From Planococcus halotolerans (GTDB lineage Bacteria > Bacillota > Bacilli > Bacillales_A > Planococcaceae), in contig NZ_QLZR01000008.1 of the NCBI RefSeq assembly GCF_003289955.1, positions 62,001 through 126,000 on the forward strand: a stretch of DNA of 64,000 nucleotides. Direction: 5' to 3'. This document shows, piece by piece, positions 369 to 60,784 of the stretch. Each line of letters opens with the position of its first letter. Position 1 is the stretch's first letter. A program made the position numbers and the translations under genes. The notes below the pieces were generated by a model, which was not told where the DNA came from, did not search any database, and was given only the letters and a program-made list of their open reading frames with translations.

Positions 369-597
369 ATATTTCAATATTAAAACGATGAAGAACCCGA
401 AGTAGGAACTGCGATTTTTTCAAGAGAGCCGGTGGTTGGTGCAAACCGGTAAAAACGCAGCAGCTGAATTACAGGTTTGGAGTTTTCGGTTGTGCCACGG
501 TTGGCACAAAAGAGTGGAAGGATTTTATTCCTTCAAGCTGGGTGGTACCGCGCGATTGCGTCCCTGCATGTCTGACATGCAGGGGCTTTTTTATTTG
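369..597 (+). ncRNA. T-box leader riboswitch of tyrS
   Basis: The leader carries the T-box hallmarks in order: an AGAGAG stem I motif near 423-428, a specifier region GAATTACAG with the tyrosine codon TAC at 470-472, the T-box sequence GGGTGGTACCGCG at 539-552 and an intrinsic terminator just after. The TAC specifier matches the downstream tyrosyl-tRNA synthetase. By family knowledge, uncharged tRNA-Tyr pairs with the specifier and with the T-box bulge, favours the antiterminator and lets tyrS be transcribed. Confidence 0.93.
560..594 (+). terminator. T-box regulatory terminator upstream of tyrS
   Basis: CCCTGCATGTC and GACATGCAGGG form a long stem followed by a T run. It competes with the antiterminator containing the T-box motif immediately upstream. 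Confidence 0.85.
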
Positions 598-9553: not shown

Positions 9554-11257
9554 ATGGTGAAGTATATCATCATTGCGGTCATCATTCTATTAGCGGTAAT
9601 TATCGTCGGCTTTATGTTTCGTAAGAAGCATCACGCGGAAATTGAACGCTTAGAACAGTTAAAACTGCAAATACAAAATAAACCGATATTGGAAGAACTG
9701 ACAAAAGTGAAACAACTTAACATGAACGGCCAGACTGAGGAAATGTTTGAACGCTGGCGCGCCACATGGACTGAAGTGATGGATGTACATATTCCGCAGA
9801 TTGACGGCATGCTTTTCGATGCAGAAGATGCAGTGGACCGTTTCAACTTCGGGAAAGCGACTGCCTTCGAGAACAAAGCGGAGGAAAAAATCGATCAGGT
9901 CGACCGCCAGATGAACGAGATTCTGATTGAGCTGGAAGAACTGATCGGCAGTGACGAAAAGAACCGCAGTGAAATGGATCTCCTCAGAGACCAATACAGA
10001 CAAGCAAGAAAAAGCTTGTTGGCCCACCAGCATTCATATGGTGCCGCTGCCGGTCCGCTTGAGAAAAAGCTTGAAACGTTCACGCCGTTATTCGAAGAAT
10101 ATGATCAGTTGACGTCCGAAGGGAATTATTTGAAAGCCCGTGAAATCGTCATCAGCTTATCTGGTGAAGGCAAGCATATCTTCCGGTTGATTGAAGTCAT
10201 CCCACCCCTGCTTGCAGATATCCAATCAAAAATCCCTTCCTATATAAATGAACTCCGCAATGGAATTAGGGAGATGGAGTCACAAAGCTATTATCTGGAG
10301 CACCTGGAGATTACCAAACAGCTGGATGCAATGGAAATCGATCTCGCTGCTGCAAAAGAACAGGTGATCAATTTAAATATTGAAGAACCGAAAAATGCAG
10401 TGGAAGACATGAAAGCAAAAGTGGATTCCTATTATGAACTTCTGGAAAATGAAGTGGAAGCCAAGCATTATGTAGATCAGCATAAAGATGAAACTGCTGA
10501 GACACTTGAAAAAGTGACTGCCGATACACGGGAAATGTCTGATGAATGCGCGGTAGTGCAACAAAGTTATAAAATACCGGAGCAAGACGCGAAAATCCCT
10601 AAAACTTGCCTGGAAACTCTTGAAGAATTGCAAAAACGTTTTGATTTGCTCGAATCCCGGACAAATGAAGACCAATCCGCCTATTCAAGCCTTCAGCAGG
10701 AGTTGAGTGAAATCCGTGCCGAACTTGAAAGTGTCAATTCGACCCAAAACAGTTTTTCAGAATCACTGAAAAGCTTGCGGACAGATGAACATAAAGCCCG
10801 TGCAAGGCTCGAAGTTCTGAAAAGAAAGCTGCAGGAAACCGACAGGATGCTTCATAAAGCTAACACGCCGGGCATCCCTGAAGAAATGGATGTCAGACTC
10901 GAAGAAGCAGAAGAAAATCTGTTTGTAGCAATGCAAGGTTTGCAGGAAGTTCCTTTAAACATGAAGTTAGTGGATAATTACTTGGTGAAAGCCGAGCGGT
11001 CGATTGAAGAAGTAGAGGAAAAAGCGGTTGAGATGGTTGAAAATGTTCAACTGATCGAGCGCATTATCCAATACGGAAACCGTTACCGTAAAACAAATCC
11101 TCAGATGAACCAGAAGTTAATGGAAGCCGAGGAATCATTCCGACAGCTCCGTTACACAAAAGCGCTTGAAGAAGCTGCGACCGCAGTCGAAAACTTCGAA
11201 CCCGGATCCATGAAGCGGATTGAAGTGCTTGGCAAAGAAAGTGCTTGGAGAGTCTAG
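9554..11257 (+). CDS. ezrA: septation ring formation regulator EzrA
   Basis: EzrA is a membrane-anchored regulator of FtsZ ring formation at the division site. The 567-residue protein has a single N-terminal membrane segment (residues about 4-21, IIIAVIILLAVIIVGFMF) followed by basic residues and a long series of heptad-rich spectrin-like helical repeats, as the family requires. It is transcribed divergently from hisJ. Its stop codon is followed after 3 nt by a copy of the family A repeat, and only then by its terminator. Confidence 0.96.
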   Translation: MVKYIIIAVIILLAVIIVGFMFRKKHHAEIERLEQLKLQIQNKPILEELTKVKQLNMNGQTEEMFERWRATWTEVMDVHIPQIDGMLFDAEDAVDRFNFGKATAFENKAEEKIDQVDRQMNEILIELEELIGSDEKNRSEMDLLRDQYRQARKSLLAHQHSYGAAAGPLEKKLETFTPLFEEYDQLTSEGNYLKAREIVISLSGEGKHIFRLIEVIPPLLADIQSKIPSYINELRNGIREMESQSYYLEHLEITKQLDAMEIDLAAAKEQVINLNIEEPKNAVEDMKAKVDSYYELLENEVEAKHYVDQHKDETAETLEKVTADTREMSDECAVVQQSYKIPEQDAKIPKTCLETLEELQKRFDLLESRTNEDQSAYSSLQQELSEIRAELESVNSTQNSFSESLKSLRTDEHKARARLEVLKRKLQETDRMLHKANTPGIPEEMDVRLEEAEENLFVAMQGLQEVPLNMKLVDNYLVKAERSIEEVEEKAVEMVENVQLIERIIQYGNRYRKTNPQMNQKLMEAEESFRQLRYTKALEEAATAVENFEPGSMKRIEVLGKESAWRV

Positions 11258-11260
11258 AAA

Positions 11261-11382
11261 GAAAAGCGGAAACGGCCGCTCAGCTCCGACAAGCGTAAGA
11301 CGATTTGGCGAAGCGGCGTCTTTTCAGCCGCACAGCCAAAGTGGCTTACGACTCGAGGAGTTGGCCGTTGGAGTCTGGACAA
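11261..11382 (+). repeat. family A structured repeat, copy A1
   Basis: The element starts GAAAAGCGGAAACGGCCG 3 nt after the ezrA stop and ends GGAGTCTGGACA. The outer arms (AACGGCC..AGCTCC..GTAAG and CTTACGACTCGAGGAGTTGG) are imperfect inverted repeats, and an inner GGCGAAGCGGCG/GCCGC hairpin sits between them. Similar copies occur at 19962, 20091 and 60665. No protein is encoded. Confidence 0.85.
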
Positions 11383-11383
11383 A

Positions 11384-11408
11384 GAAAAGCAAAAGCGCCC
11401 GTTACTTA
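11384..11408 (+). repeat. truncated left end of a second family A repeat
   Basis: GAAAAGCAAAAGCGCCCGTT repeats the left end of the family A element immediately after copy A1, then diverges. It resembles the start of copy A3 (GAAAAGCGACAGCGCCCGTT). Confidence 0.6.
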
Positions 11409-11438
11409 ACACTGCGAAACAGTGCCAACAAAAAAATT

Positions 11439-11475
11439 AAAACCACCAGCCCCCATGCTGGTGGTTTTCTTTTCG
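11439..11475 (+). terminator. ezrA terminator
   Basis: AAAACCACCAGC and GCTGGTGGTTTT form a perfect stem with a CCCCAT loop, followed by CTTTT. Confidence 0.88.
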
Positions 11476-11486
11476 GAGGTGATCAT

Positions 11487-12590
11487 GTGATTTATTTGGA
11501 TAACAGTGCAACTACCAAACCCAAAAAAGAAGTACTGGAAACTTTCATGAAAGCCAGTGAGCATTATTATGGAAATCCTGCTTCACTTCATAAAATAGGC
11601 AATGATGCTGAAAATCTGCTTGAATCGGCGCGCAAACAAATTGCGCAAATTTTGCATATGGACCATATTGTTTTCACATCCGGCGGCACAGAATCGAATA
11701 ATATGGCAATTGTCGGGACAGCAGAAGCTTATGCACATCGTGGACGCCATATCATTTCGTCAAACAGCGAACACGCTTCCGTATTGAAATCACTGGACGA
11801 ACTTGAAAGAAGAGGTTTTGAAATTACGAGGCTGCCCATCAACAATTCAGGGCACATCGAGTTGGAAGATCTGAAGAACAAGCTGAGAGACGATACGATT
11901 CTCGTAACGCTGATGCATGTAAACAATGAAACCGGAGCCGTTAATCCGATTGCAGAAGTCAAAAAAATCCTGAACGGAACACGAACTTTCCTTCACACGG
12001 ATGCGGTCCAAAGCATAGGCAAGCTTCCTTTGGATCCTGCTTATATGCCGGACTTGCTGACTCTGTCAGCTCATAAATTGCACGGATTGAAAGGCAGCGG
12101 CATTCTGGCATTCAACTCTGTTCAGCCTGAAGCGATTATAGTGGGCGGCGGACAGGAATCAGGCTACCGGAGCGGCACAGTTCCAGTGCCTCTAGCAGCG
12201 GCAATGGCTAAAACTCTCCGGATAACCCAGCCAAACCCTGAGTTCACTGAGTGGAATAAAACATTAAGGGAGTTTTTCAGCTCTTTTGATGATATTATGG
12301 TCATCAGCCCGGAAAACGCTGCATCACACATATTATCCGTTGCGATGAAAGGTGTTAAAGGGGAAATTCTGGTATCAGGGCTCCAGGAAGAGTCAATTAT
12401 CGTTTCCACATCGAGTGCCTGTTCATCAAAAAATAAAAAAACAAGCCATGTAATAGAAGCTTTGAATATATCGCCTGCATATAGAGATGGCGTAATACGC
12501 ATCAGTTTTGGTGCATTTACAAACCAGCAGGACATCACTGATTTTCAGCAGGCATTCAAAAAGGTCCACGGGATTATCAAAGGAGTTTAA
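11487..12590 (+). CDS. nifZ: cysteine desulfurase (NifS/IscS family) partner of ThiI
   Basis: The enzyme takes sulfur from cysteine and, by family knowledge of this gene pair, passes it to ThiI for 4-thiouridine formation. The 367-residue protein shows the PLP lysine in SAHKLHGLKG, the N-terminal YLDNSATTKP and the catalytic cysteine loop STSSACSS. The true start is the GTG at 11487 with GGAGGT 6 nt upstream; a much longer reading frame upstream merely runs through repeat and terminator sequence. The next gene, thiI, starts 4 nt after its stop, so they form an operon as in B. subtilis nifZ-thiI. Confidence 0.94.
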   Translation: MIYLDNSATTKPKKEVLETFMKASEHYYGNPASLHKIGNDAENLLESARKQIAQILHMDHIVFTSGGTESNNMAIVGTAEAYAHRGRHIISSNSEHASVLKSLDELERRGFEITRLPINNSGHIELEDLKNKLRDDTILVTLMHVNNETGAVNPIAEVKKILNGTRTFLHTDAVQSIGKLPLDPAYMPDLLTLSAHKLHGLKGSGILAFNSVQPEAIIVGGGQESGYRSGTVPVPLAAAMAKTLRITQPNPEFTEWNKTLREFFSSFDDIMVISPENAASHILSVAMKGVKGEILVSGLQEESIIVSTSSACSSKNKKTSHVIEALNISPAYRDGVIRISFGAFTNQQDITDFQQAFKKVHGIIKGV

Positions 12591-12594
12591 CACA

Positions 12595-13797
12595 ATGAAG
12601 ACTAATCAAATACTCGTCAGATACGGCGAGCTATCAACAAAAGGGAAAAACAGAAGTTCATTCATCGGCCGTCTGCGGGATAATATCCATCATACATTCA
12701 GCGATCTTGGAAAACTGCAGATCAAAGCGGAACGCGACCGCATGTTCATCAATTCAGACAGCGAAGAAGATATGGAAAAAGTGATTGCAAGATTGCCCAA
12801 AGTTTTCGGCATCCAGTCATTCAGTCCTGTCACTGAAACAGAATTGTCGCTTGAGGAGATGCAAACGGCTGCGGTTGCTTTGGTCGGCAAAATGGAGTTG
12901 CAAGGGAAAAGCTTTAAAGTTTCAGTTAGAAGGGCAAATAAAGACTTCGAACTCCAAAAGCCGGAAATTCTCCATGGCATCGGGTCGCATGTACTGCGGG
13001 CATATCCTGAACTTTCCGTTCAAATGAAGAATCCGGATATCGAGTTGAAAGTGGAAATCCGTGACAAAGCAGCATATATGACTGCAGAAGTGATTAAAGG
13101 TGCAGGCGGTTTGCCTATTGGAGCCGGCGGCAAAGCTTTGCTTATGCTGTCGGGTGGACTTGACAGTCCGGTTGCCGGCTATCATATGCTGAAAAGGGGT
13201 GTCCGTCTGGAATTGATCCATTTCTTCAGCCCTCCATTCACAAATGAACGAGCAAAAGAAAAAGTGTTTGATCTGGCTGAGAAGCTGAGTGAATTCGGAT
13301 CTTCCGTAAATCTGCATATCATTCCGTTTACAAAGCTTCAGCAGGAAGTCCATAAACAAGTGCCTGACAATATCACCATGACCTCAACCCGCCGCATGAT
13401 GATGCGCGTTGCCGATAAAGTACTTGAAGCTACGGATTCAAAAGCGATCATAACCGGTGAGAGCCTGGGGCAAGTTGCAAGCCAGACGCTCGAGAGCCTA
13501 TACGCGATCAATGCTGTTACAAATACACCGGTTCTGCGTCCGCTGATTTCATCAGATAAGCTGGAAATCATTGAAACAGCCATGCAAATCGGTACACACG
13601 ATATTTCGATCCGGCCATATGAAGATTGCTGTACCATTTTCACACCGGCAAATCCGAAAACAAAACCGAAGCTGGATAAAGTGGAATATTACGAAGGATT
13701 TGTGGCTTTCGAAGAGTTGATCCAGGAAGCAGTGGATGAACGCGAAATTATTAAATTCCCGAGACCGAAAAAAGATGAATTTGAAGATATTCTTTAA
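12595..13797 (+). CDS. thiI: tRNA 4-thiouridine sulfurtransferase ThiI
   Basis: ThiI adenylates and thiolates uridine 8 of tRNA. The 400-residue protein has the N-terminal ferredoxin-like and THUMP regions (about 1-165), the PP-loop ATPase motif LMLSGGLDSPVAGY near residue 187, and a conserved CCTIFTP segment. It lacks the C-terminal rhodanese domain of the E. coli enzyme, which is normal for Firmicutes and explains its pairing with the dedicated desulfurase upstream. AGGAG before the ATG overlaps the end of the preceding gene. Confidence 0.96.
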   Translation: MKTNQILVRYGELSTKGKNRSSFIGRLRDNIHHTFSDLGKLQIKAERDRMFINSDSEEDMEKVIARLPKVFGIQSFSPVTETELSLEEMQTAAVALVGKMELQGKSFKVSVRRANKDFELQKPEILHGIGSHVLRAYPELSVQMKNPDIELKVEIRDKAAYMTAEVIKGAGGLPIGAGGKALLMLSGGLDSPVAGYHMLKRGVRLELIHFFSPPFTNERAKEKVFDLAEKLSEFGSSVNLHIIPFTKLQQEVHKQVPDNITMTSTRRMMMRVADKVLEATDSKAIITGESLGQVASQTLESLYAINAVTNTPVLRPLISSDKLEIIETAMQIGTHDISIRPYEDCCTIFTPANPKTKPKLDKVEYYEGFVAFEELIQEAVDEREIIKFPRPKKDEFEDIL

Positions 13798-13826
13798 AGG
13801 CTGCCGCGTGCAGCCTTTTATTTTTG
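13796..13826 (+). terminator. nifZ-thiI operon terminator
   Basis: AAAGGCTGC and GCAGCCTTTT pair across CGCGT directly at the thiI stop, followed by a T-rich tract. Confidence 0.85.
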
Positions 13827-13902
13827 GTTAATTATTTTGAATAATAAAATTATTGCGGTACAATAATAACCGTATAAGCAAATTGTTCAAGGGGGTATCA
13901 AC

Positions 13903-15474
13903 ATGAACCGGGAAACATTATTGGCACCAAGAAATTATAATTTAGTGGATGAAATTGAAAAGTTTGCAGACGGAAGCGGAAAAATGGCACTTGTCTGGGA
14001 AAATGACAAAGGCGAGTCCCGAGAATTCACCTATGATGAATTAATGGCAGCGGCCAATAAAGCGGCCAACAGTTTTGAGAAGGCTGGCCTTAACAAAGGT
14101 GATGTGGTGCTTGTCATGGTACCGAGACTGATAGAAGCATATATTACATATATTGGCGCGTTGAAAGCCGGGCTGATAGTTATACCAAGTTCAGAAATGC
14201 TGCGGGCAAAAGATATTTCCTACAGACTGAACCATAGTGCCGCAAAAGCTGTGGTCGCTTATGAACCGTTCATGGACCAATTCAGTGAAGTCCCTGAAAT
14301 GGACCAGACGGTGAAATTCGTCATCGGCAATTCGGTCGATTCCTGGATTTCATTGACACAGGAAATGGAAAATGCTTCTGACAAGTACGAAAAAGCGGCA
14401 ACACATAATGACGATATGGCTTTTTTATCCTATACATCAGGCACTACCGGCAACCCTAAAGGTGCAGTGCACAGCCATGGATGGGCCTATGCTCACCTTC
14501 GCACTTCCGCCGAGCACTGGCTTGGGGCCAAGGAAGGCGATCTTGTCTGGGCAACCGCCAGCCCAGGTTGGCAAAAATGGATCTGGAGTCCTTTCCTGGC
14601 TACTTTGGGCAGTGGAGCTACCGGATATGTTTATAACGGGAAGTTCGATCCAGAAACGTATTTGCAGATTCTCGAAAGACAAAAAATCAACGTGCTTTGC
14701 TGTACACCAACAGAGTACCGCTTAATGGCGAAGCAGAAAAATCTTGCTGATTTCGATTTATCATCACTTCACAGCGCCGTGTCTGCAGGGGAGCCGTTGA
14801 ATGCAGAAGTCATCAATGTATTCAAGGAACATTTCGGGCTGGAAGTCAGAGATGGCTACGGACAGACTGAAAATACACTGCTTGTCGGTGTGATGAAAGG
14901 AATGGAAATCCGAATCGGCTCGATGGGCAAGCCTACGCCGGGCAATAAAGTGGAAATCATCGATGAATTCGGAAATCCATGTCCGTCAGGGGAAGTCGGA
15001 GATATTGCGGTCCATGCCGAAACGCCGGCTTTGTTCAAAGGGTATTTCAATGATGATGAACGGACAAAAATGCAATTCCGCGGAGATTATTATGTCACAG
15101 GAGATAAAGCTTCAAAAGATGACGATGGTTATTTCTGGTTTGAAGGCCGGGGAGATGACATTATTATATCTTCAGGCTACACAATCGGACCGTTTGAAGT
15201 CGAAGACGCATTGGTGAAACATCCTAAAGTACAGGAATGTGCTGTAGTCGGTTCGCCGGATGAAATTCGCGGCACTGTAGTAAAAGCTTTCGTAGTTTTG
15301 GTTGAAGGGGCAGAGCCTTCAGAAGAGCTGGTGATGGAATTGCAGAACCATGTCAAGGAATTGACAGCTCCGTATAAATACCCAAGATCTGTAGAGTTTT
15401 TGGAAGAATTGCCGAAAACCGCGTCTGGAAAGATTCGCCGTGTTGAACTGCGCCAAAAGGAAATGAATAAGTAA
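13903..15474 (+). CDS. acyl-CoA synthetase, AMP-forming (acetyl-CoA synthetase-like)
   Basis: This 523-residue ANL-superfamily enzyme activates a carboxylic acid to its CoA thioester through an acyl-adenylate. The P-loop-like motif YTSGTTGNPKG is near residue 178, GYGQTEN near 323, the hinge and core motif TGDKASKDDDGYFWFEGRGDDII near 400, and the C-terminal lysine motif PKTASGKIRR near 506. The substrate (acetate, propionate or medium chain acid) cannot be read from sequence. GGGGGT precedes the ATG. B. subtilis has a comparable acyl-CoA synthetase gene in this neighbourhood. Confidence 0.88.
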   Translation: MNRETLLAPRNYNLVDEIEKFADGSGKMALVWENDKGESREFTYDELMAAANKAANSFEKAGLNKGDVVLVMVPRLIEAYITYIGALKAGLIVIPSSEMLRAKDISYRLNHSAAKAVVAYEPFMDQFSEVPEMDQTVKFVIGNSVDSWISLTQEMENASDKYEKAATHNDDMAFLSYTSGTTGNPKGAVHSHGWAYAHLRTSAEHWLGAKEGDLVWATASPGWQKWIWSPFLATLGSGATGYVYNGKFDPETYLQILERQKINVLCCTPTEYRLMAKQKNLADFDLSSLHSAVSAGEPLNAEVINVFKEHFGLEVRDGYGQTENTLLVGVMKGMEIRIGSMGKPTPGNKVEIIDEFGNPCPSGEVGDIAVHAETPALFKGYFNDDERTKMQFRGDYYVTGDKASKDDDGYFWFEGRGDDIIISSGYTIGPFEVEDALVKHPKVQECAVVGSPDEIRGTVVKAFVVLVEGAEPSEELVMELQNHVKELTAPYKYPRSVEFLEELPKTASGKIRRVELRQKEMNK

Positions 15475-15479
15475 AGCGA

Positions 15480-15509
15480 GGCAGCGGGAACAATCCTGCT
15501 GCTTTTTTT
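15480..15509 (+). terminator. terminator after the acyl-CoA synthetase gene
   Basis: GGCAGCGGG and CCTGCTGC form an imperfect stem followed by seven T. Confidence 0.7.
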
Positions 15510-15589
15510 ATTGCCTTAGCTCAGCTTGAAGCCTATAATTGAATAATATTTCGATATTGAAAATAAATTAAGAATGGTGATAAATATAA

Positions 15590-16525
15590 ATGGCTGATGA
15601 GAAAAAAGGAATTATCTATACGATTTTGACATACGCGATGTGGGGAGTCCTTCCGATCTATTGGAAGCAGCTTGGGCATGTTCCGAGTGATGAAATCCTG
15701 GCAGCGCGAATTTTTTGGGCATTCTGGGTAACTGTGGCTTTCATCTTTCTGATAGGCGGTCATAAACAACTTTTTGCCGACCTTAAAAGCCTTTGGAGAT
15801 CAAAAAAAGCTTTTTTTACATTGATGCTTGCTTCTTATTTGATAACACTGAACTGGTTCCTTTACATATTCGCTGTAACCAATGACCGGATTGTGGAAAC
15901 CAGCATGGCTTACTATATCAATCCATTGGTGTCGATGCTGCTGGGTGTTTTCTTCCTGAAAGAAAAATTGACGCCGGCCATTAAAATCGCCTTTATCCTG
16001 GCGGCTATCGGTGTTGGGATTCTCACCATTTCCTATGGCGCATTTCCTTGGATGGCGCTGGGAATGGCGTTCAGTTTCGCTTTTTATGGTCTGATCAAAA
16101 AAACCATCAAACTGAATGCACTCCGAGGACTGGCACTGGAAACATTGTTCGTGCTGCCTGTGGCAACCGCATTTTATATTTACTTATTCGCAATCGATAG
16201 AGCCGCTTTTACCACGGTGAACATTGAAACGGATGGATTACTGATTTTGAGTGGAGCCGTCACTGCCTTGCCATTGGTCCTGTTTGCAACTGGAGCACCT
16301 TTGATCCCGATGTACATGATCGGGTTCCTGCAGTATATTGCTCCGACGATGATGCTTATTATTGGCGTATTAATGTACGGAGAAGAATTCAACCGGACCA
16401 GTTTAATTTCTTTTTCATTCATTTGGGTGGCGCTGATTTTATTCACAGCATCCAAAGTGTCGGAAGCTCGAAAAATCCGGCGGGAAAAAGTTCGGAATCC
16501 GATTGCCTACAGTAAAAAACAATGA
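15590..16525 (+). CDS. rarD: RarD-type EamA/DMT transporter
   Basis: The 311-residue protein is highly hydrophobic with about ten predicted membrane segments in two EamA halves. The N-terminal KGIIYTILTYAMWGVLPIYWKQLGHVPSDEILAARIFWAF is the typical RarD beginning, and NWFLYIFAVTNDRIVETSMAYYINPLVSMLLGVFFL is the family's conserved core. RarD proteins are drug/metabolite exporters of uncertain substrate; resistance to chloramphenicol has been attributed to the E. coli member. It stands alone with a GGTGAT ribosome binding site. Confidence 0.9.
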   Translation: MADEKKGIIYTILTYAMWGVLPIYWKQLGHVPSDEILAARIFWAFWVTVAFIFLIGGHKQLFADLKSLWRSKKAFFTLMLASYLITLNWFLYIFAVTNDRIVETSMAYYINPLVSMLLGVFFLKEKLTPAIKIAFILAAIGVGILTISYGAFPWMALGMAFSFAFYGLIKKTIKLNALRGLALETLFVLPVATAFYIYLFAIDRAAFTTVNIETDGLLILSGAVTALPLVLFATGAPLIPMYMIGFLQYIAPTMMLIIGVLMYGEEFNRTSLISFSFIWVALILFTASKVSEARKIRREKVRNPIAYSKKQ

Positions 16526-16579
16526 AACATTTCTGAGATTCAAACGTATATTTACCAGAGAAATAAAGGAGGAATTTTT

Positions 16580-17593
16580 ATGAATTCAAAAAGGTGGATC
16601 GCGCTTGTTGTTGCTGCTGCGGTACTAGTGGTGTCTTTACTGGTCAATTCAGTATTTACGTTGTTCCAAAGTGATTTTGCCAGCGATTTTGATGAACTGA
16701 TGGCGACTGAGACAAATAAATTTGAAGAAACGGTCATCGAACAGGGCAGTGCCAATTCGCGCATTGCTGTATTGGAAGTTGATGGTGCCATTCAGGATAC
16801 AGGAGAGGCTTCTCCGCTATTTGGAACTGCCGGCTACAACCATGAATTTTTTATGGGACAGCTGGAACAAATCAAAGAAGATGACAGCATCAAGGCAGTT
16901 ATGCTGAAAATCAATTCACCAGGAGGCGGTGTGGTGGAGTCAGCTGAAATCTATGACAAAATCACAGAAATCCAGGAAGAAACCGGGAAACCATTTTATG
17001 TATCTATGGAAGCGATGGCAGCTTCAGGCGGATATTACATCGCTGCACCGGCCGATAAAATTTTTGTAAATAAAGAAACACTGACCGGTTCGATTGGTGT
17101 CATCATGCAAAGTGTCAATTACGGTGAGCTTGCTGAACGGTATGGTGTGGATTTTGTAACGATCAAATCCGGTCCATATAAGGACATCATGAGTCCAACA
17201 CGTGATATGACTAATGAAGAACGCGAACTGTTGCAGGAAATGCTGGATGATTCGTATCAAAGCTTCGTGGATATCATAGTTGAAGGCCGTGATATGCCGG
17301 AAGAAGAAGTCCGCGCTGTTGCCGACGGACGCATTATGAACGGACGCCAGGCGGTGGAAGCGAATCTTGCTGATGACTTTGGCTATGAAGAAGATGTAAT
17401 TGCAGGATTGCGGAATGATTTCGATTTAGCGGATGCTCAAGTTTTCAAATATGGAGTATCTCAAAGCTGGGCTTCTTTGCTTAATGTGAAAGTTCAATCG
17501 CTGTTCGGAAACGATATCGAAACTCAGATGCTGGCGAAGCTGATGACTGAATACAGTTCACCTCGCATGATGTATCTGTATGGTGATAAATAA
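16580..17593 (+). CDS. sppA: signal peptide peptidase SppA, S49 family
   Basis: SppA is a membrane-anchored serine protease that degrades residual signal peptides. The 337-residue protein has one N-terminal membrane segment (about residues 6-27) and an S49 core: LKINSPGGGVVES, the nucleophile serine in EAMAASGGYYIAA, and the general-base lysine in TIKSGPYKDIMSP. This matches the short, single-domain Gram-positive SppA. AAGGAGG precedes the ATG. The RDD gene follows after 12 nt, so the two form an operon, as sppA-yteJ in B. subtilis. Confidence 0.96.
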   Translation: MNSKRWIALVVAAAVLVVSLLVNSVFTLFQSDFASDFDELMATETNKFEETVIEQGSANSRIAVLEVDGAIQDTGEASPLFGTAGYNHEFFMGQLEQIKEDDSIKAVMLKINSPGGGVVESAEIYDKITEIQEETGKPFYVSMEAMAASGGYYIAAPADKIFVNKETLTGSIGVIMQSVNYGELAERYGVDFVTIKSGPYKDIMSPTRDMTNEERELLQEMLDDSYQSFVDIIVEGRDMPEEEVRAVADGRIMNGRQAVEANLADDFGYEEDVIAGLRNDFDLADAQVFKYGVSQSWASLLNVKVQSLFGNDIETQMLAKLMTEYSSPRMMYLYGDK

Positions 17594-17605
17594 GGAGGGG
17601 CGATT

Positions 17606-18184
17606 ATGGCAGACAATATTAATTCTGAAAAACCGGCACATATTAATGACGGGATTCCTCAAGCAGGTCAAAGGCAATATGAAGAAGTGTTGTTCTATGA
17701 ACGCAAGCCTGCCGGTTTCTGGATCCGTTTCTGGGCTTATCTGATCGATCTCCTTGTTATTTCGGCTGTTACATCCATTCTATTGAAACCGGTATTTGCG
17801 CTTCTCGGCCTTTCCATGCAATCGTCCAATTGGTATGCGCCTTTTGCTATTTTGTCGGCAATTCTGTTTTACACGTATTTTGTGTTAATGACGAAATTTT
17901 TTGGTCAGACAATCGGCAAGATGATTTTCGGGATCAGAGTAGTATCTCTAAAGAAGGATTCACTCGACTGGGGTACCTTGCTGTTCCGGGAATGGATCGG
18001 TAGATTCATATCAGTTACCATTCTTCCTCTTTATTTCATCGTCGGGTTTACATCGTTGAAACAGGGAGTCCATGATTTCTTTGCTGATACGACTGTGGTG
18101 CATGAACAATCCTACCGAAAACGCAAGATGATGCAGAAAGTCTCGAGTAATGGGTCTGGGTTGCAAGAAGAGAGCGCCTTTTAG
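17606..18184 (+). CDS. yteJ: RDD-family membrane protein (SppA partner, YteJ type)
   Basis: The 192-residue protein has a soluble N-terminus of about 35 residues and an RDD domain with three to four membrane helices; the signature arginine-aspartate pair is seen in GFWIRFWAYLIDLLV and later in KMIFGIRVV and LLFREWIGRF. In B. subtilis the equivalent gene sits behind sppA and encodes an inhibitor of SppA; that role is inferred here from synteny. An AAGGAGG site overlaps the sppA stop region, so translation is probably coupled. Confidence 0.85.
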   Translation: MADNINSEKPAHINDGIPQAGQRQYEEVLFYERKPAGFWIRFWAYLIDLLVISAVTSILLKPVFALLGLSMQSSNWYAPFAILSAILFYTYFVLMTKFFGQTIGKMIFGIRVVSLKKDSLDWGTLLFREWIGRFISVTILPLYFIVGFTSLKQGVHDFFADTTVVHEQSYRKRKMMQKVSSNGSGLQEESAF

Positions 18185-18218
18185 TATGATGATAGTAATC
18201 TGAAAGGGAGGCGTTTGA

Positions 18219-18725
18219 ATGGTACAAGTTACATTTCATGAAAATCCTGTTACCTTACCAAACAAAGAAGTCAAAGTTGGAGACCAAATCCCGAATTTCA
18301 CAGTACTTGATAATGACTTGAACCCTGTGACTGCCCAGGATACAGCAGGTAAAGTCAGATTGTTCACAGTGTCACCATCCTTGGATACAAGTGTTTGTTC
18401 AGATCAGGCGAAACGTTTCAGCGAAGAAGCTTCATCACTGGGAGACGAAGTTGCAATCTACTATGTAACATGTGATTTGCCTTTCGCACAAAAACGCTGG
18501 GTTGAAGTCAATGAAGCCAAAAATCTCACTACTCTTTCCGATCACCGTGATCTTTCTTTCGGTGAAGCGTTCGGAGTAACGATGCAGGAACTGCGTTTGC
18601 TGGCCCGTTCCATCTTTGTAGTGGATGAAAACGATAAAGTGACTTATGTGGAATATGTTCCTGAGGGAACGAATCATCCGGATTACGATAAAGCGATTGA
18701 AGCAGTAAAAGAACTGACAAAATAA
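18219..18725 (+). CDS. tpx: thiol peroxidase Tpx
   Basis: Tpx is an atypical 2-Cys peroxiredoxin that reduces hydrogen and alkyl peroxides with thioredoxin. The 168-residue protein has the peroxidatic cysteine in SPSLDTSVCSDQAKRF and the resolving cysteine in YVTCDLPFAQKRW. GGGAGGCG lies 7 nt before the ATG. A terminator follows directly. The position between yteJ and ytxK matches B. subtilis. Confidence 0.97.
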   Translation: MVQVTFHENPVTLPNKEVKVGDQIPNFTVLDNDLNPVTAQDTAGKVRLFTVSPSLDTSVCSDQAKRFSEEASSLGDEVAIYYVTCDLPFAQKRWVEVNEAKNLTTLSDHRDLSFGEAFGVTMQELRLLARSIFVVDENDKVTYVEYVPEGTNHPDYDKAIEAVKELTK

Positions 18726-18730
18726 TACTT

Positions 18731-18758
18731 GGAACCCACTCATATGAGTGGGTTTCCT
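18731..18758 (+). terminator. tpx terminator
   Basis: GGAACCCACTCAT and ATGAGTGGGTTTCC pair fully. The T tract is short, so some readthrough into the ytxK-like gene 20 nt later is possible. Confidence 0.7.
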
Positions 18759-18777
18759 TATTGAGGACGGAGAACTA

Positions 18778-19701
18778 ATGAATTCAGCAATGGAAAATGT
18801 ATTTAATTTTATCGATAAGCACACTTCTGAAATTCAGAAGGAGCAGGAGAATTCCTATCTGGAAAGCTTGCTGACCACTACGGAGAAATGGCTGGATGGT
18901 TTAATTCAACCTGAGGAAGAAGCAGGCAAGGAAGATATTCGCAAAGCGATTCAGCTGGCGGTTTTGAAAGGTATGAAAGAACATATTCAGCCGCATCATC
19001 AGATGACGCCTGATGCACTTGGATTGCTGATGGGTTACCTTGTGGAATTATTCGTGAAGAAAGACCAGGCGACCATTTTGGATCCAGCTGTCGGAACTGG
19101 CAATTTAATATTGACTGTCATGAATTATCTGGATGGCAAGTTGGTGGGTGCCGGAGTGGAAATTGACGATCTCCTCATCAAGCTTGCATCCAACACAGGG
19201 AATCTCGTCCAGCAGCCAGTGACCCTTTATCTCCAGGATGCATTGCAGCCATTGATGATAGATCCGGTTGATGCAGTGGTGTCTGATTTGCCGGTTGGGT
19301 ATTATCCTAATGATGAGAATGCTGCAACATATGAACTGAAGGCTGAAGAAGGGATGTCTTACGCTCATCACCTTTTTATCGAACAATCCTTGAAACACAC
19401 GGCAGATGGCGGTTATCTGTTCTTTATCGTGCCAAAAGCATTATTTGAGTCGCCGATGGCCGGCCAGCTGCATAATTATTTGAAGAAAACGGCCGATATA
19501 CAGGCAGTTATGGAATTGCCAGAGACACTCTTTAAAAATTCTTCCCATGCAAAAGGAATTCTTGTCCTGCAGAAGAAAAAAGAAGGCGTTAAAGCGCCAA
19601 GAGAAGTGTTATTGGCAAGAGTCCCGAATATGTCTAAGCCGGACTCGATGGCAAAATTCTTTACACAAGTCAATAACTGGTTTAAAGAAAATAAAGAATG
19701 A
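18778..19701 (+). CDS. ytxK: class I SAM-dependent methyltransferase, YtxK type
   Basis: The 307-residue protein resembles N6-adenine DNA methyltransferases: the SAM-binding motif ILDPAVGTGNLIL is near residue 112. The catalytic motif usually written NPPY reads SDLPVGYYP here, so adenine methylation is doubtful; I believe this variant is shared by YtxK relatives. The start at 18778 is chosen because AGGACGGAG lies just upstream; an earlier in-frame start would lie inside the tpx terminator. B. subtilis has ytxK in the same place. No restriction enzyme gene is nearby. Confidence 0.85.
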   Translation: MNSAMENVFNFIDKHTSEIQKEQENSYLESLLTTTEKWLDGLIQPEEEAGKEDIRKAIQLAVLKGMKEHIQPHHQMTPDALGLLMGYLVELFVKKDQATILDPAVGTGNLILTVMNYLDGKLVGAGVEIDDLLIKLASNTGNLVQQPVTLYLQDALQPLMIDPVDAVVSDLPVGYYPNDENAATYELKAEEGMSYAHHLFIEQSLKHTADGGYLFFIVPKALFESPMAGQLHNYLKKTADIQAVMELPETLFKNSSHAKGILVLQKKKEGVKAPREVLLARVPNMSKPDSMAKFFTQVNNWFKENKE

Positions 19702-19717
19702 AATAGTGAAAATATGC

Positions 19718-19723
19718 TATACT
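19718..19723 (+). promoter_or_regulatory. extended -10 promoter of the 61-aa protein gene
   Basis: TGCTATACT at 19715-19723 is a TG-n-TATACT extended -10 about 50 nt upstream of the GTG start. No convincing -35 is seen. Confidence 0.5.
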
Positions 19724-19772
19724 GTAAATAGCAGAAATATTGCATCAGTCCAATTGAAAAGAGGGATGACAC

Positions 19773-19958
19773 GTGAGTGAGTCCAATGAAACACCAAAAA
19801 AAGTCAGTTTGCAGGAAGCTGTAAAGCGCCAGCTTGAAGCTAAGAAAAACCAGGCTTCCGGTAAAAAAGGAAGCGGCAGCGCATCTATGGAAACGAAAAA
19901 GATGAAGAGCCAGCAAACGAAGAAAGTTAATAATACACGACGTAAGATGGGCGTGTAA
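19773..19958 (+). CDS. small lysine-rich protein of unknown function (61 aa)
   Basis: I do not recognise this protein. It is short, strongly basic and low in hydrophobic residues (LQEAVKRQLEAKKNQ, KKMKSQQTKKVNNTRRKMGV), with a predicted helix near residues 11-27 and a probably disordered remainder. This composition suits a nucleic-acid-binding or ribosome-associated protein, but no motif proves that. The GTG start has a GAGGGATG ribosome binding site, and a good extended -10 promoter lies upstream, which supports it as a real gene. Two family A repeats follow the stop codon, then a terminator. Confidence 0.7.
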   Translation: MSESNETPKKVSLQEAVKRQLEAKKNQASGKKGSGSASMETKKMKSQQTKKVNNTRRKMGV

Positions 19959-19961
19959 TTA

Positions 19962-20088
19962 GAAAAGCGACAGCGAGAGAGGGCCTCGAAAATTTTGGGG
20001 CCCTCTCTTTGCGACGAAGCAGCGCAGCGATGCAGGAGCACTTTAGTGGCTTATGACCCGAAGAGCTGGGCGGCTGGAGTCTGGACAG
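19962..20088 (+). repeat. family A structured repeat, copy A2 (hybrid core)
   Basis: It starts GAAAAGCGACAGCG 3 nt after the stop of the 61-aa gene and ends GAGCTGGGCGGCTGGAGTC then TGGACA. The inner hairpin is GAGAGAGGGCC/GGCCCTCTC, and its core GCGACGAAGC..GCGCAGCGATGCAGGAGCAC is shared with the family B copy near 59550. Confidence 0.8.
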
Positions 20089-20090
20089 CA

Positions 20091-20208
20091 GAAAAGCGAC
20101 AGCGCCCGTTAAGCTCTGAAAGGCATAAGACAGAATAGCGAAGTGGCGATTAGCCACGCAGCTAGGCTGACTTATGACCCGAAGAGCTGGGCGGCTGGAG
20201 TCTGGACA
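20091..20208 (+). repeat. family A structured repeat, copy A3 (tandem with A2)
   Basis: It starts GAAAAGCGACAGCGCCCGTT 2 nt after A2 and ends with the same GGAGTCTGGACA. The outer arms (GTTAAGCTC..GCATAAGAC and CTTATGACCCGAAGAGCTGG) are inverted and an inner AAGTGGCGATTAGCCACG hairpin sits at the tip. Confidence 0.85.
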
Positions 20209-59371: not shown

Positions 59372-59622
59372 ACCGCTTCGGTATACCGCTACGGCGCTAT
59401 GGACAAGCCTCTCGCAATAAGCCGAGAAGACCACTCGTCTTCTGCCCGGTCGGCATTCGCCTGCTCCTGAACCGCGCCGGCACTGAGAGAGACTTCTAGA
59501 GATATGGAGCAAAACAGCGAAGCGCGGTCGAAGGTCTTTCGACCGGCGCTTTGCGACGAAGCTAGCGCAGCGATGCAGGAGCACGAGGTTTTGGCAAGCT
59601 TATCTGTTTTGCGGAATATCGT
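59372..59622. repeat. family B repeat, copy B2
   Basis: The left module (59401-59442, GGACAAGCC..AATAAGCCGAGAAGACC) and right module (59495-59621) match copy B1. Inverted ends AGATATGGAGCAAAACAG and CTGTTTTGCGGAATATCG bound the right module, with a GCGCGGTCGAAGG/CTTTCGACCGGCGC hairpin inside and the GCGACGAAGC..GCGCAGCGATGCAGG core shared with repeat A2. It occupies the gap between thrS and the infC promoter. Confidence 0.75.
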
Positions 59623-59649
59623 CTATGTAAGGTTTATTGAGATGAACTG

Positions 59650-60664: not shown

Positions 60665-60784
60665 GAAAAGCGAAAACGGCCGTTCAGCTCCGGCAGACTT
60701 AAGATGAACTTCCGAAGCGGCGTTTTTTGCCGCACAGGAAGGGCAGCTTAAGACCGAGGAGCTGGCCCGTTGGAGTCTGGACAA
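60665..60784 (+). repeat. family A structured repeat, copy A4, inside the rpmI-rplT operon
   Basis: It starts GAAAAGCGAAAACGGCCG 4 nt after the rpmI stop and ends TTGGAGTCTGGACA. Outer arms (AACGGCCGTTCAGCTCC..CTTAAGA and CTTAAGACCGAGGAGCTGG) are inverted, with a GAAGCGGCG/GCCGC hairpin inside. It lengthens the rpmI-rplT gap to 174 nt. Confidence 0.85.

What the first reader, a model, noticed from the sequence alone, without database searches (positions are those of the whole stretch)
11261..20208. Structured repeat family placed 3-4 nt after stop codons
Copies at 11261, 19962 and 60665 begin with GAAAAGCG 3, 3 and 4 nt after the stop codons of ezrA, a 61-aa gene and rpmI, and end with GGAGTCTGGACA; a tandem copy follows at 20091. 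All have the same orientation as the flanking gene and lie inside the transcript, before the terminator or in mid-operon. Outer arms are inverted and an inner hairpin sits at the tip. Such precise placement suggests targeted insertion next to stop codons, or an RNA element acting on 3' ends.
Basis: seen in the sequence. Interest (0 to 1): 0.75.

Follow-up and report, generated by a model that had tools for sequence, protein, structure and literature searches.

The report
Mobile hairpin repeat beside stop codons
A short hairpin repeat without a gene of its own has spread through Planococcus and other Bacillales genomes, and more than half of the sampled copies that begin a repeat chain sit within a few letters of a gene's stop codon.

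Summary
The four window copies belong to a large repeat family: 102 exact 3' ends and at least 130 covariance-model hits in this Planococcus-type genome, 0 to 141 exact ends in 36 genus genomes, and hits in 38 of 299 Bacilli genomes, 19 of 118 genera. No Rfam family matches the copies. The ~120-nt unit folds into one long hairpin with strong covariation on the sense strand (GU 126 versus AC 6 cells). Units stand singly, in head-to-tail arrays, or nested; some end in a ~55-nt tail. Of 172 chain starts, 100 lie within 8 nt of a same-strand stop codon (94 at 0-6 nt, 6 overlapping it; 5.6% expected); 59 have a divergent gene upstream. A close relative has unit plus tail directly after a TAA that is untouched here. 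Best reading: a non-autonomous mobile repeat, inserted in one orientation at A-rich, TAA-like sites, surviving mostly between stop codon and terminator. A general 3'-UTR regulator is unlikely, since 50 of 172 starts are antisense to both neighbours. The mobilising enzyme is unknown; Y1 transposase and reverse transcriptase do not track it.

The parts
11261..11381 (+). unit 1: complete 121-nt hairpin repeat, 3 nt after the ezrA stop codon (TAG 11255-11257)
   Evidence: (124.8 bits)
11384..11404 (+). truncated 5' remnant of a further unit (GAAAAGC...GCGCCCGTTA); close relative G005 has this remnant directly after TAGAAA and no complete unit
11441..11473 (+). ezrA terminator hairpin and T-run, downstream of the repeat
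   Evidence: sequence
19962..20087 (+). unit 2: variant with a replaced inner module (second hairpin plus GCGACGAAGCAGCGCAGCGATGCAGGAGCA), 3 nt after the stop of the 61-aa ORF (TAA 19956-19958)
   Evidence: (25.2 bits)
20091..20208 (+). unit 3: complete 118-nt unit, head-to-tail with unit 2, 3-nt spacer
   Evidence: 131.5 bits
20231..20261 (+). terminator hairpin and T-run downstream of the two-unit array
   Evidence: sequence
60665..60783 (+). unit 4: complete 119-nt unit between rpmI and rplT, 4 nt after the rpmI stop (TAA 60658-60660); the same place is occupied in 32 of 38 genus genomes read
   Evidence: 123.2 bits

Best explanation
These are copies of a non-autonomous mobile repeat of Bacillales. 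A full-length copy is about 175 nt: a ~120-nt unit (GAAAAGCG ... GGAGTCTGGACA) that folds into one long hairpin, plus a ~55-nt AT-rich tail ending near CTTTCTTATC. Shown: dispersal, presence/absence at orthologous sites, sense-strand covariation, head-to-tail arrays with 2-5 nt spacers, nesting at one recurrent spot of other copies, and starts mostly 0-6 nt after stop codons or facing a divergent gene. Inferred: a trans-acting enzyme of unknown kind recognises the folded sense strand (RNA or single-stranded DNA) and inserts it in one orientation after an A-rich, TAA-like target, possibly with a short target duplication; survivors cluster where they do least harm, between stop codon and terminator or outside a promoter, so stop codons (mostly TAA) become the main landing place. 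Arrays grow by further units or by unequal exchange. Any effect on mRNA 3' ends, such as blocking exonucleases, is a by-product.
For: Exact 3' ends from 0 to 141 across 36 genus genomes; 130 model hits in the own genome and 137 in its close relative G005, both capped at 150 scored candidates. Filled/empty pair: in G005 a 173-nt unit plus tail begins 0 nt after the TAA of a 328-aa frame, while G000 has the same gene end and terminator without it. ezrA: absent or one unit fewer in relatives; rpmI: empty in G025, G003, G030. 100 of 172 starts at stops versus 5.6%. The 3' end faces a terminator-like hairpin in 47 of 97 after-stop and 24 of 58 divergent-gene chains, versus 5 and 3 on the 5' side and 44 of 684 random windows. 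Covariation: 98.2% of cells paired, 20 of 33 pairs changed on both sides (10.5 in shuffles). Flank repeats of 4 nt or more in 12 of 39 tail-bearing rows, 5.6 +- 1.8 after shuffling, 12 being also the largest of 2000 shuffles. Other families: of 52 chain starts in top-scoring loci 12 lie within 8 nt of a same-strand stop and 28 face a divergent gene, six of the 28 directly behind another unit.
Against: No mobilising gene was found and no copy with a protein gene: of 30 tail-motif loci read, 26 have a unit-like 3' end upstream (lenient match), 3 are deleted or variant copies, 1 looks like chance. The duplication signal is modest; its 39 rows include two mis-parsed and some doubtful ones. Terminal inverted repeats are at best 5-6 nt. 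The rpmI copy has stayed in place in much of the genus, with 12 of 33 pairs changed on both sides among 22 copies, which also fits local function or conversion. Precise loss rather than gain is not excluded at any single site. Chain starts are not all independent: own genome, G005 and part of the named loci are close relatives.
Confidence: 0.68

Rival explanations
1. A structured 3'-UTR element with a host function: the hairpin next to the stop codon protects the mRNA 3' end or modulates termination, and selection keeps it there.
For: Sense orientation and close spacing at 100 of 172 starts; sense-strand folding with GU 126 versus AC 6; rpmI copy in 32 of 38 genomes read, with compensatory changes.
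Against: 50 of 172 starts are antisense to both neighbours; exact-end counts differ from 0 to 141 between species; ezrA site without a repeat in the more distant species read, rpmI copy empty in 3 and reduced to remnants in 3 of 38; tandem and nested copies.
Confidence: 0.12
2. The stop-codon placement itself is only a by-product: insertion at A-rich sites anywhere, with selection leaving those between stop and terminator. (This concerns the placement and overlaps with the best explanation.)
For: The base before the repeat is A in 138 of 172, also mostly A in the divergent-gene class; control stops have the terminator stem a median 11 nt away; zone plus flank preference predicts 69% within 6 nt given orientation. 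In the best filled/empty pair the terminator stem begins only about 6 nt after the stop, so it does not separate the readings.
Against: Observed 100 of 103; TAG and TGA stops are used too (17 and 10 of 100).
Confidence: 0.35
3. IS200/IS605- or REP/RAYT-type single-strand transposition by a Y1 transposase.
For: Sense-strand-only structure and lack of a clear inverted repeat resemble such elements (recalled); 29 of 46 genus genomes hold a Y1 transposase, two in G000.
Against: G025, G016, G063, G003 and G007, with 106, 59, 38, 42 and 27 copies by exact end or pattern, have no Y1 hit, while G010, G013 and G020, with no exact end, do; exact ends undercount diverged copies. No constant flanking tetranucleotide.
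Confidence: 0.1
4. Retro-insertion of the RNA (group II intron or other reverse transcriptase in trans).
For: RNA-like structure of one strand; A-rich target and short flank repeats.
Against: No RVT_1 match in G000, G005, G025, G016, G019, G027, G003, G032; 11 of 46 genus genomes have one. Truncated copies seen at chain ends keep the 5' end, not the 3' end.
Confidence: 0.07

Closest known systems
bcr1-bcr3 of the Bacillus cereus group
   Same: Short dispersed intergenic repeats (100-400 bp for bcr1-bcr18), MITE-like, about half of all bcr copies transcribed in UTRs or operon gaps (passages of PMC3446304 and PMC6542083).
   Different: The first bcr element is described as restricted to the B. 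cereus group and bcr mobility as tied to a TTTAT motif; this family matches 19 of 118 genera sampled, and its flanks are A-rich but not constant. Stop-codon anchoring is not mentioned in the passages seen. No bcr sequence was compared here.
BOX, RUP and SPRITE of Streptococcus pneumoniae
   Same: Modular, structured, found in clusters and inserted into one another, enriched downstream of genes; in 36 cases a BOX repeat supplies the stop codon (passages of PMC3049150).
   Different: Nothing in the passages seen describes a fixed spacing after stop codons; here most after-stop copies start at 0-6 nt in one orientation. Sequences were not compared.
REP/BIME with RAYT
   Same: Extragenic structured repeats (from the abstract's start); strand-specific hairpins in such systems are recalled.
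   Different: REPs are 20-40 bp and the families are named after GTAG or CGTC tags (title and start of abstract of PMC3733652 as listed); here ~120 nt beginning GAAAAGCG, and Y1 is absent from several high-copy genomes.

Membership tests
bcr1 (B. cereus repeats) | restricted to the B. cereus group | tested here: not met
   found in Planococcus and in 38 of 299 Bacilli genomes, 19 of 118 genera
bcr1 (B. cereus repeats) | TTTAT motif at the ends | tested here: not met
   39 tail-bearing rows show varied A-rich flanks; ATAAA (its complement) at the 5' junction in a minority
bcr1 (B. cereus repeats) | sequence similarity to bcr1 | not tested
   no bcr1 sequence fetched
MITE | target-site duplication | tested here: inconclusive
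   12 of 39 rows versus 5.6 +- 1.8 shuffled
MITE | terminal inverted repeats | tested here: inconclusive
   GAAAAG at the 5' end against CTTATC near the tail's end, 5 of 6 nt, by eye; not scored
MITE | AT-rich | tested here: not met
   three canonical window units GC 0.55-0.58; only the tail is AT-rich
REP/RAYT | Y1 (RAYT-type) transposase in the genome | tested here: not met
   no hit in G025, G016, G063, G003, G007, all with many copies; G000 itself has two
Group II intron or derivative | intron RNA signature or reverse transcriptase in the genome | tested here: not met
   no Rfam match overlapping a copy in L046, L056, L090 up to E = 1; no RVT_1 in G000
Any Rfam 15 family | score above gathering | tested here: not met
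   window: only a T-box at 379-568

The most novel reading that the evidence does not exclude
An RNA-borne selfish element that has spread through Bacillales without a gene of its own by inserting at the ends of reading frames: its folded sense-strand RNA, made as part of a host mRNA, would be the mobile form and the stop codon/terminator region of a transcript or gene the recognised target.
Probability: 0.1. Interest if true: 0.92.

Novelty: new variant of a known kind. Interest (0 to 1): 0.6.

Why it matters
A repeat family with over a hundred copies in some genomes and hits in 19 of 118 sampled genera is missing from Rfam 15. Its close placement at stop codons gives a natural record of where bacterial genes tolerate insertions, touches the 3' ends of core genes (ezrA, rpmI), and poses a testable question: which enzyme moves a gene-less, sense-strand-folded element into the gap between stop codon and terminator?

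Tried and rejected
Concatenated flank query to find orthologous sites (built): dropped unsent, because earlier DNA searches scored only a few candidate places per genome (6 or 8). Terminator A-tract as sole anchor: disfavoured, because control stops with a terminator have the A-tract within 6 nt in only 43% (90 of 208). Y1 transposase and reverse transcriptase: rejected as current mobilisers by co-distribution. A longer protein-coding version sharing the tail: none among 30 tail loci read of 31 matches. Viral carriage: 0 exact pattern matches in viral contigs. Rfam: nothing at the copies. Literature: eight searches listed no description of this family; they cover only the held open-access library, and only passages of four papers were seen. 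attC-like sites were considered from memory and not tested. Weak points of my scripts: first start calling left five units without a start and was replaced; two of 39 rows have negative lengths; one row of the 13 'other' starts (L084) is mis-parsed; at least four of the 59 divergent-gene rows look internal to other copies; one search ended with an error after printing the counts used; 17 of the 19 copies flagged as nested show the shared spot, two do not.
Full report
Check of the observation. The four copies are present at the stated coordinates, begin GAAAAGCG, end GGAGTCTGGACA and lie 3, 3 and 4 nt after the stop codons of ezrA, a 61-aa reading frame and rpmI, with the fourth in tandem. The 12-mer 3' end occurs 102 times exactly in the 3.62-Mb genome and its reversed control 0 times. 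A covariance model from 55 canonical copies finds 130 matches among 150 scored candidates of 1175, so 130 is a lower bound. In the window it finds the four copies and two weak antisense echoes of their palindromes.

Anatomy. Most units are 117-122 nt (66 of the 97 with a start). One long hairpin leaves the ends (GAAAA and CTGGACA) unpaired. On 55 copies 98.2% of cells pair; 20 of 33 pairs have changes on both sides against 10.5 in shuffles, and 180 cells against 43. G-U pairs number 126 and A-C mismatches 6 of 1815 cells; leaving out two columns dominated by G-U, 44 against 6. A structure acting equally in both strands would not show this, so the strand read with GAAAAGCG first is the folded one, as RNA or single-stranded DNA. 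Some copies have the inner part replaced or enlarged by another hairpin module (window 19962-20087 is one). Copies at chain ends often carry an AT-rich tail of about 55 nt ending near CTTTCTTATC. Of 30 tail-motif loci read, 26 have a unit-like 3' end upstream (lenient match), L398 is an internally deleted copy, L399 a variant, L407 joins GAAAAGC directly to the tail, and L401 looks like chance. Other chains end in a truncated 5' remnant of a further unit, as after ezrA. Tandem spacers are 2-5 nt (27 of 27 own and 50 of 50 named gaps). Nineteen copies were flagged as nested, 17 of them just after the tip hairpin of a host copy.

Placement. The fetched regions of the own genome hold 142 elements in 115 chains; 80 named loci (the first 80 of 107 stretches, mostly Planococcus and Planomicrobium) hold 149 in 99. 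After dropping 42 of the 214 chain starts (flagged as nested, inside a called gene, continuing a chain, or without an upstream gene) 172 remain: 100 within 8 nt of a same-strand stop, 59 with a divergent gene upstream, 13 neither. Of the 100, 94 start 0-6 nt after the stop and 6 overlap it by 1-11 nt. Of the 59, 50 are antisense to both neighbours, 8 precede a same-strand gene, 1 has none downstream; 29 lie 50-90 nt from the divergent start, and at least four look internal to other copies. Stops used: TAA 73, TAG 17, TGA 10, against about 63, 11 and 25% in neighbouring genes. With the flank preference learned from the divergent-gene class, 5.6% of intergenic oriented positions would fall 0-8 nt after a same-strand stop. 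A stricter null, only between stop and terminator stem and with flank preference, gives 52% for right orientation and at most 6 nt, and 69% given the orientation; observed 100 of the 103 starts with a same-strand stop within 100 nt, or 94 of 97 without the overlapping ones. So much of the effect follows from an A-rich target in a short permitted zone, but not all. The 3' end faces a terminator-like hairpin in 47 of 97 after-stop and 24 of 58 divergent-gene chains, the 5' side in 5 and 3; random windows 44 of 684. Caveats: gene calls are my own simple script; chain starts in related genomes are not independent.

Mobility. Exact 3' ends in 36 genus genomes range from 0 to 141. G005 is 92-98% identical in the aligned stretches. 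There a 173-nt unit plus tail starts directly after the TAA of a 328-aa frame; G000 has the same gene end, with its terminator stem about 6 nt after the stop, and no repeat; GTAA precedes the insert and recurs two nt after the tail. In a second pair (L370/L196) G005 has an extra unit plus tail in an existing chain. At ezrA G005 lacks exactly one unit, G063 has two, G025 one, G003, G060 and G064 remnants, and the more distant species read show stop codon and terminator only. At rpmI, of 38 genomes read (of 46; chosen partly by best match, so the eight unread may be poorer) 32 have a copy, three of these degenerate, 3 have remnants and 3 (G025, G003, G030) are empty. On 22 copies from this site that I chose as complete, 12 of 33 pairs show two-sided changes, by constraint or by conversion from other copies. 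Flanking direct repeats of 4 nt or more occur in 12 of 39 tail-bearing rows against 5.6 +- 1.8.

Range. The strict pattern is met in 43 of 250 genomes of the family: 33 of 46 in the window's genus and 10 of 204 elsewhere. The model, with stricter filters and 12 candidates scored per genome, matches 38 of 299 genomes across the class in nine family labels and 19 of 118 genera; four other genomes hold 113, 44, 43 and 9 copies. In 46 top-scoring loci from other genera the ends mostly read GAAAAGCG and GGAGCTGGACA. Of 52 chain starts there, 12 lie within 8 nt of a same-strand stop, 28 face a divergent gene (six directly behind another unit), 10 lie further behind a stop (six directly behind another unit), 2 lack an upstream gene. 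The two placement modes thus recur in other families, though the numbers are small.

Mechanism. Mobility or at least precise presence/absence, strand-specific structure and placement are shown; the enzyme is not. Y1 transposases occur in 29 of 46 genus genomes but not in several high-copy ones; reverse transcriptases in 11 of 46, not in the own genome. A host-function reading is weakened by the 50 starts antisense to both neighbours. I commit to a non-autonomous, orientation-specific mobile repeat with an A-rich, TAA-like target and survival mainly between stop and terminator.

Comparison. It works like bcr, BOX or REP repeats and is filed with none of them (see the membership table). No description was found by eight searches of the held library; papers outside its licences were not searchable. 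The confidence values are unchanged by the recount.

Noticed in passing
window 59500-59640: A different repeat in the gap before the infC region (ATATGGAGCAAAACAGC ... CTGTTTTGCGGAATATCG) carrying the same inner module GCGACGAAGCTAGCGCAGCGATGCAGGAGCA as some stop-codon repeats; related stretches appear in L352/L088 and L356/L068.
   Followed up: partly
window 379-568: T-box leader, 96.7 bits.
   Followed up: no
L032 and L351, downstream of the repeat: Arrays of short spaced motifs behind terminators: GCGGATAAA-type in G000 and TTGCCGATCACAAACAG-type in G005.
   Followed up: no
L034, L036, L070, L089, L243 and others: Several nested copies share an inner repeat ending GGAGACTAGACA, inserted at the same spot of the host hairpin, as if one composite had itself multiplied.
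   Followed up: partly
G027:C1:3309598-3310699: Tandem array of ten 3' ends at a 121-122 bp period.
   Followed up: no
L325: One pattern match in a record labelled as a Lachnospiraceae MAG (listed); chance, transfer or contamination not examined.
   Followed up: no
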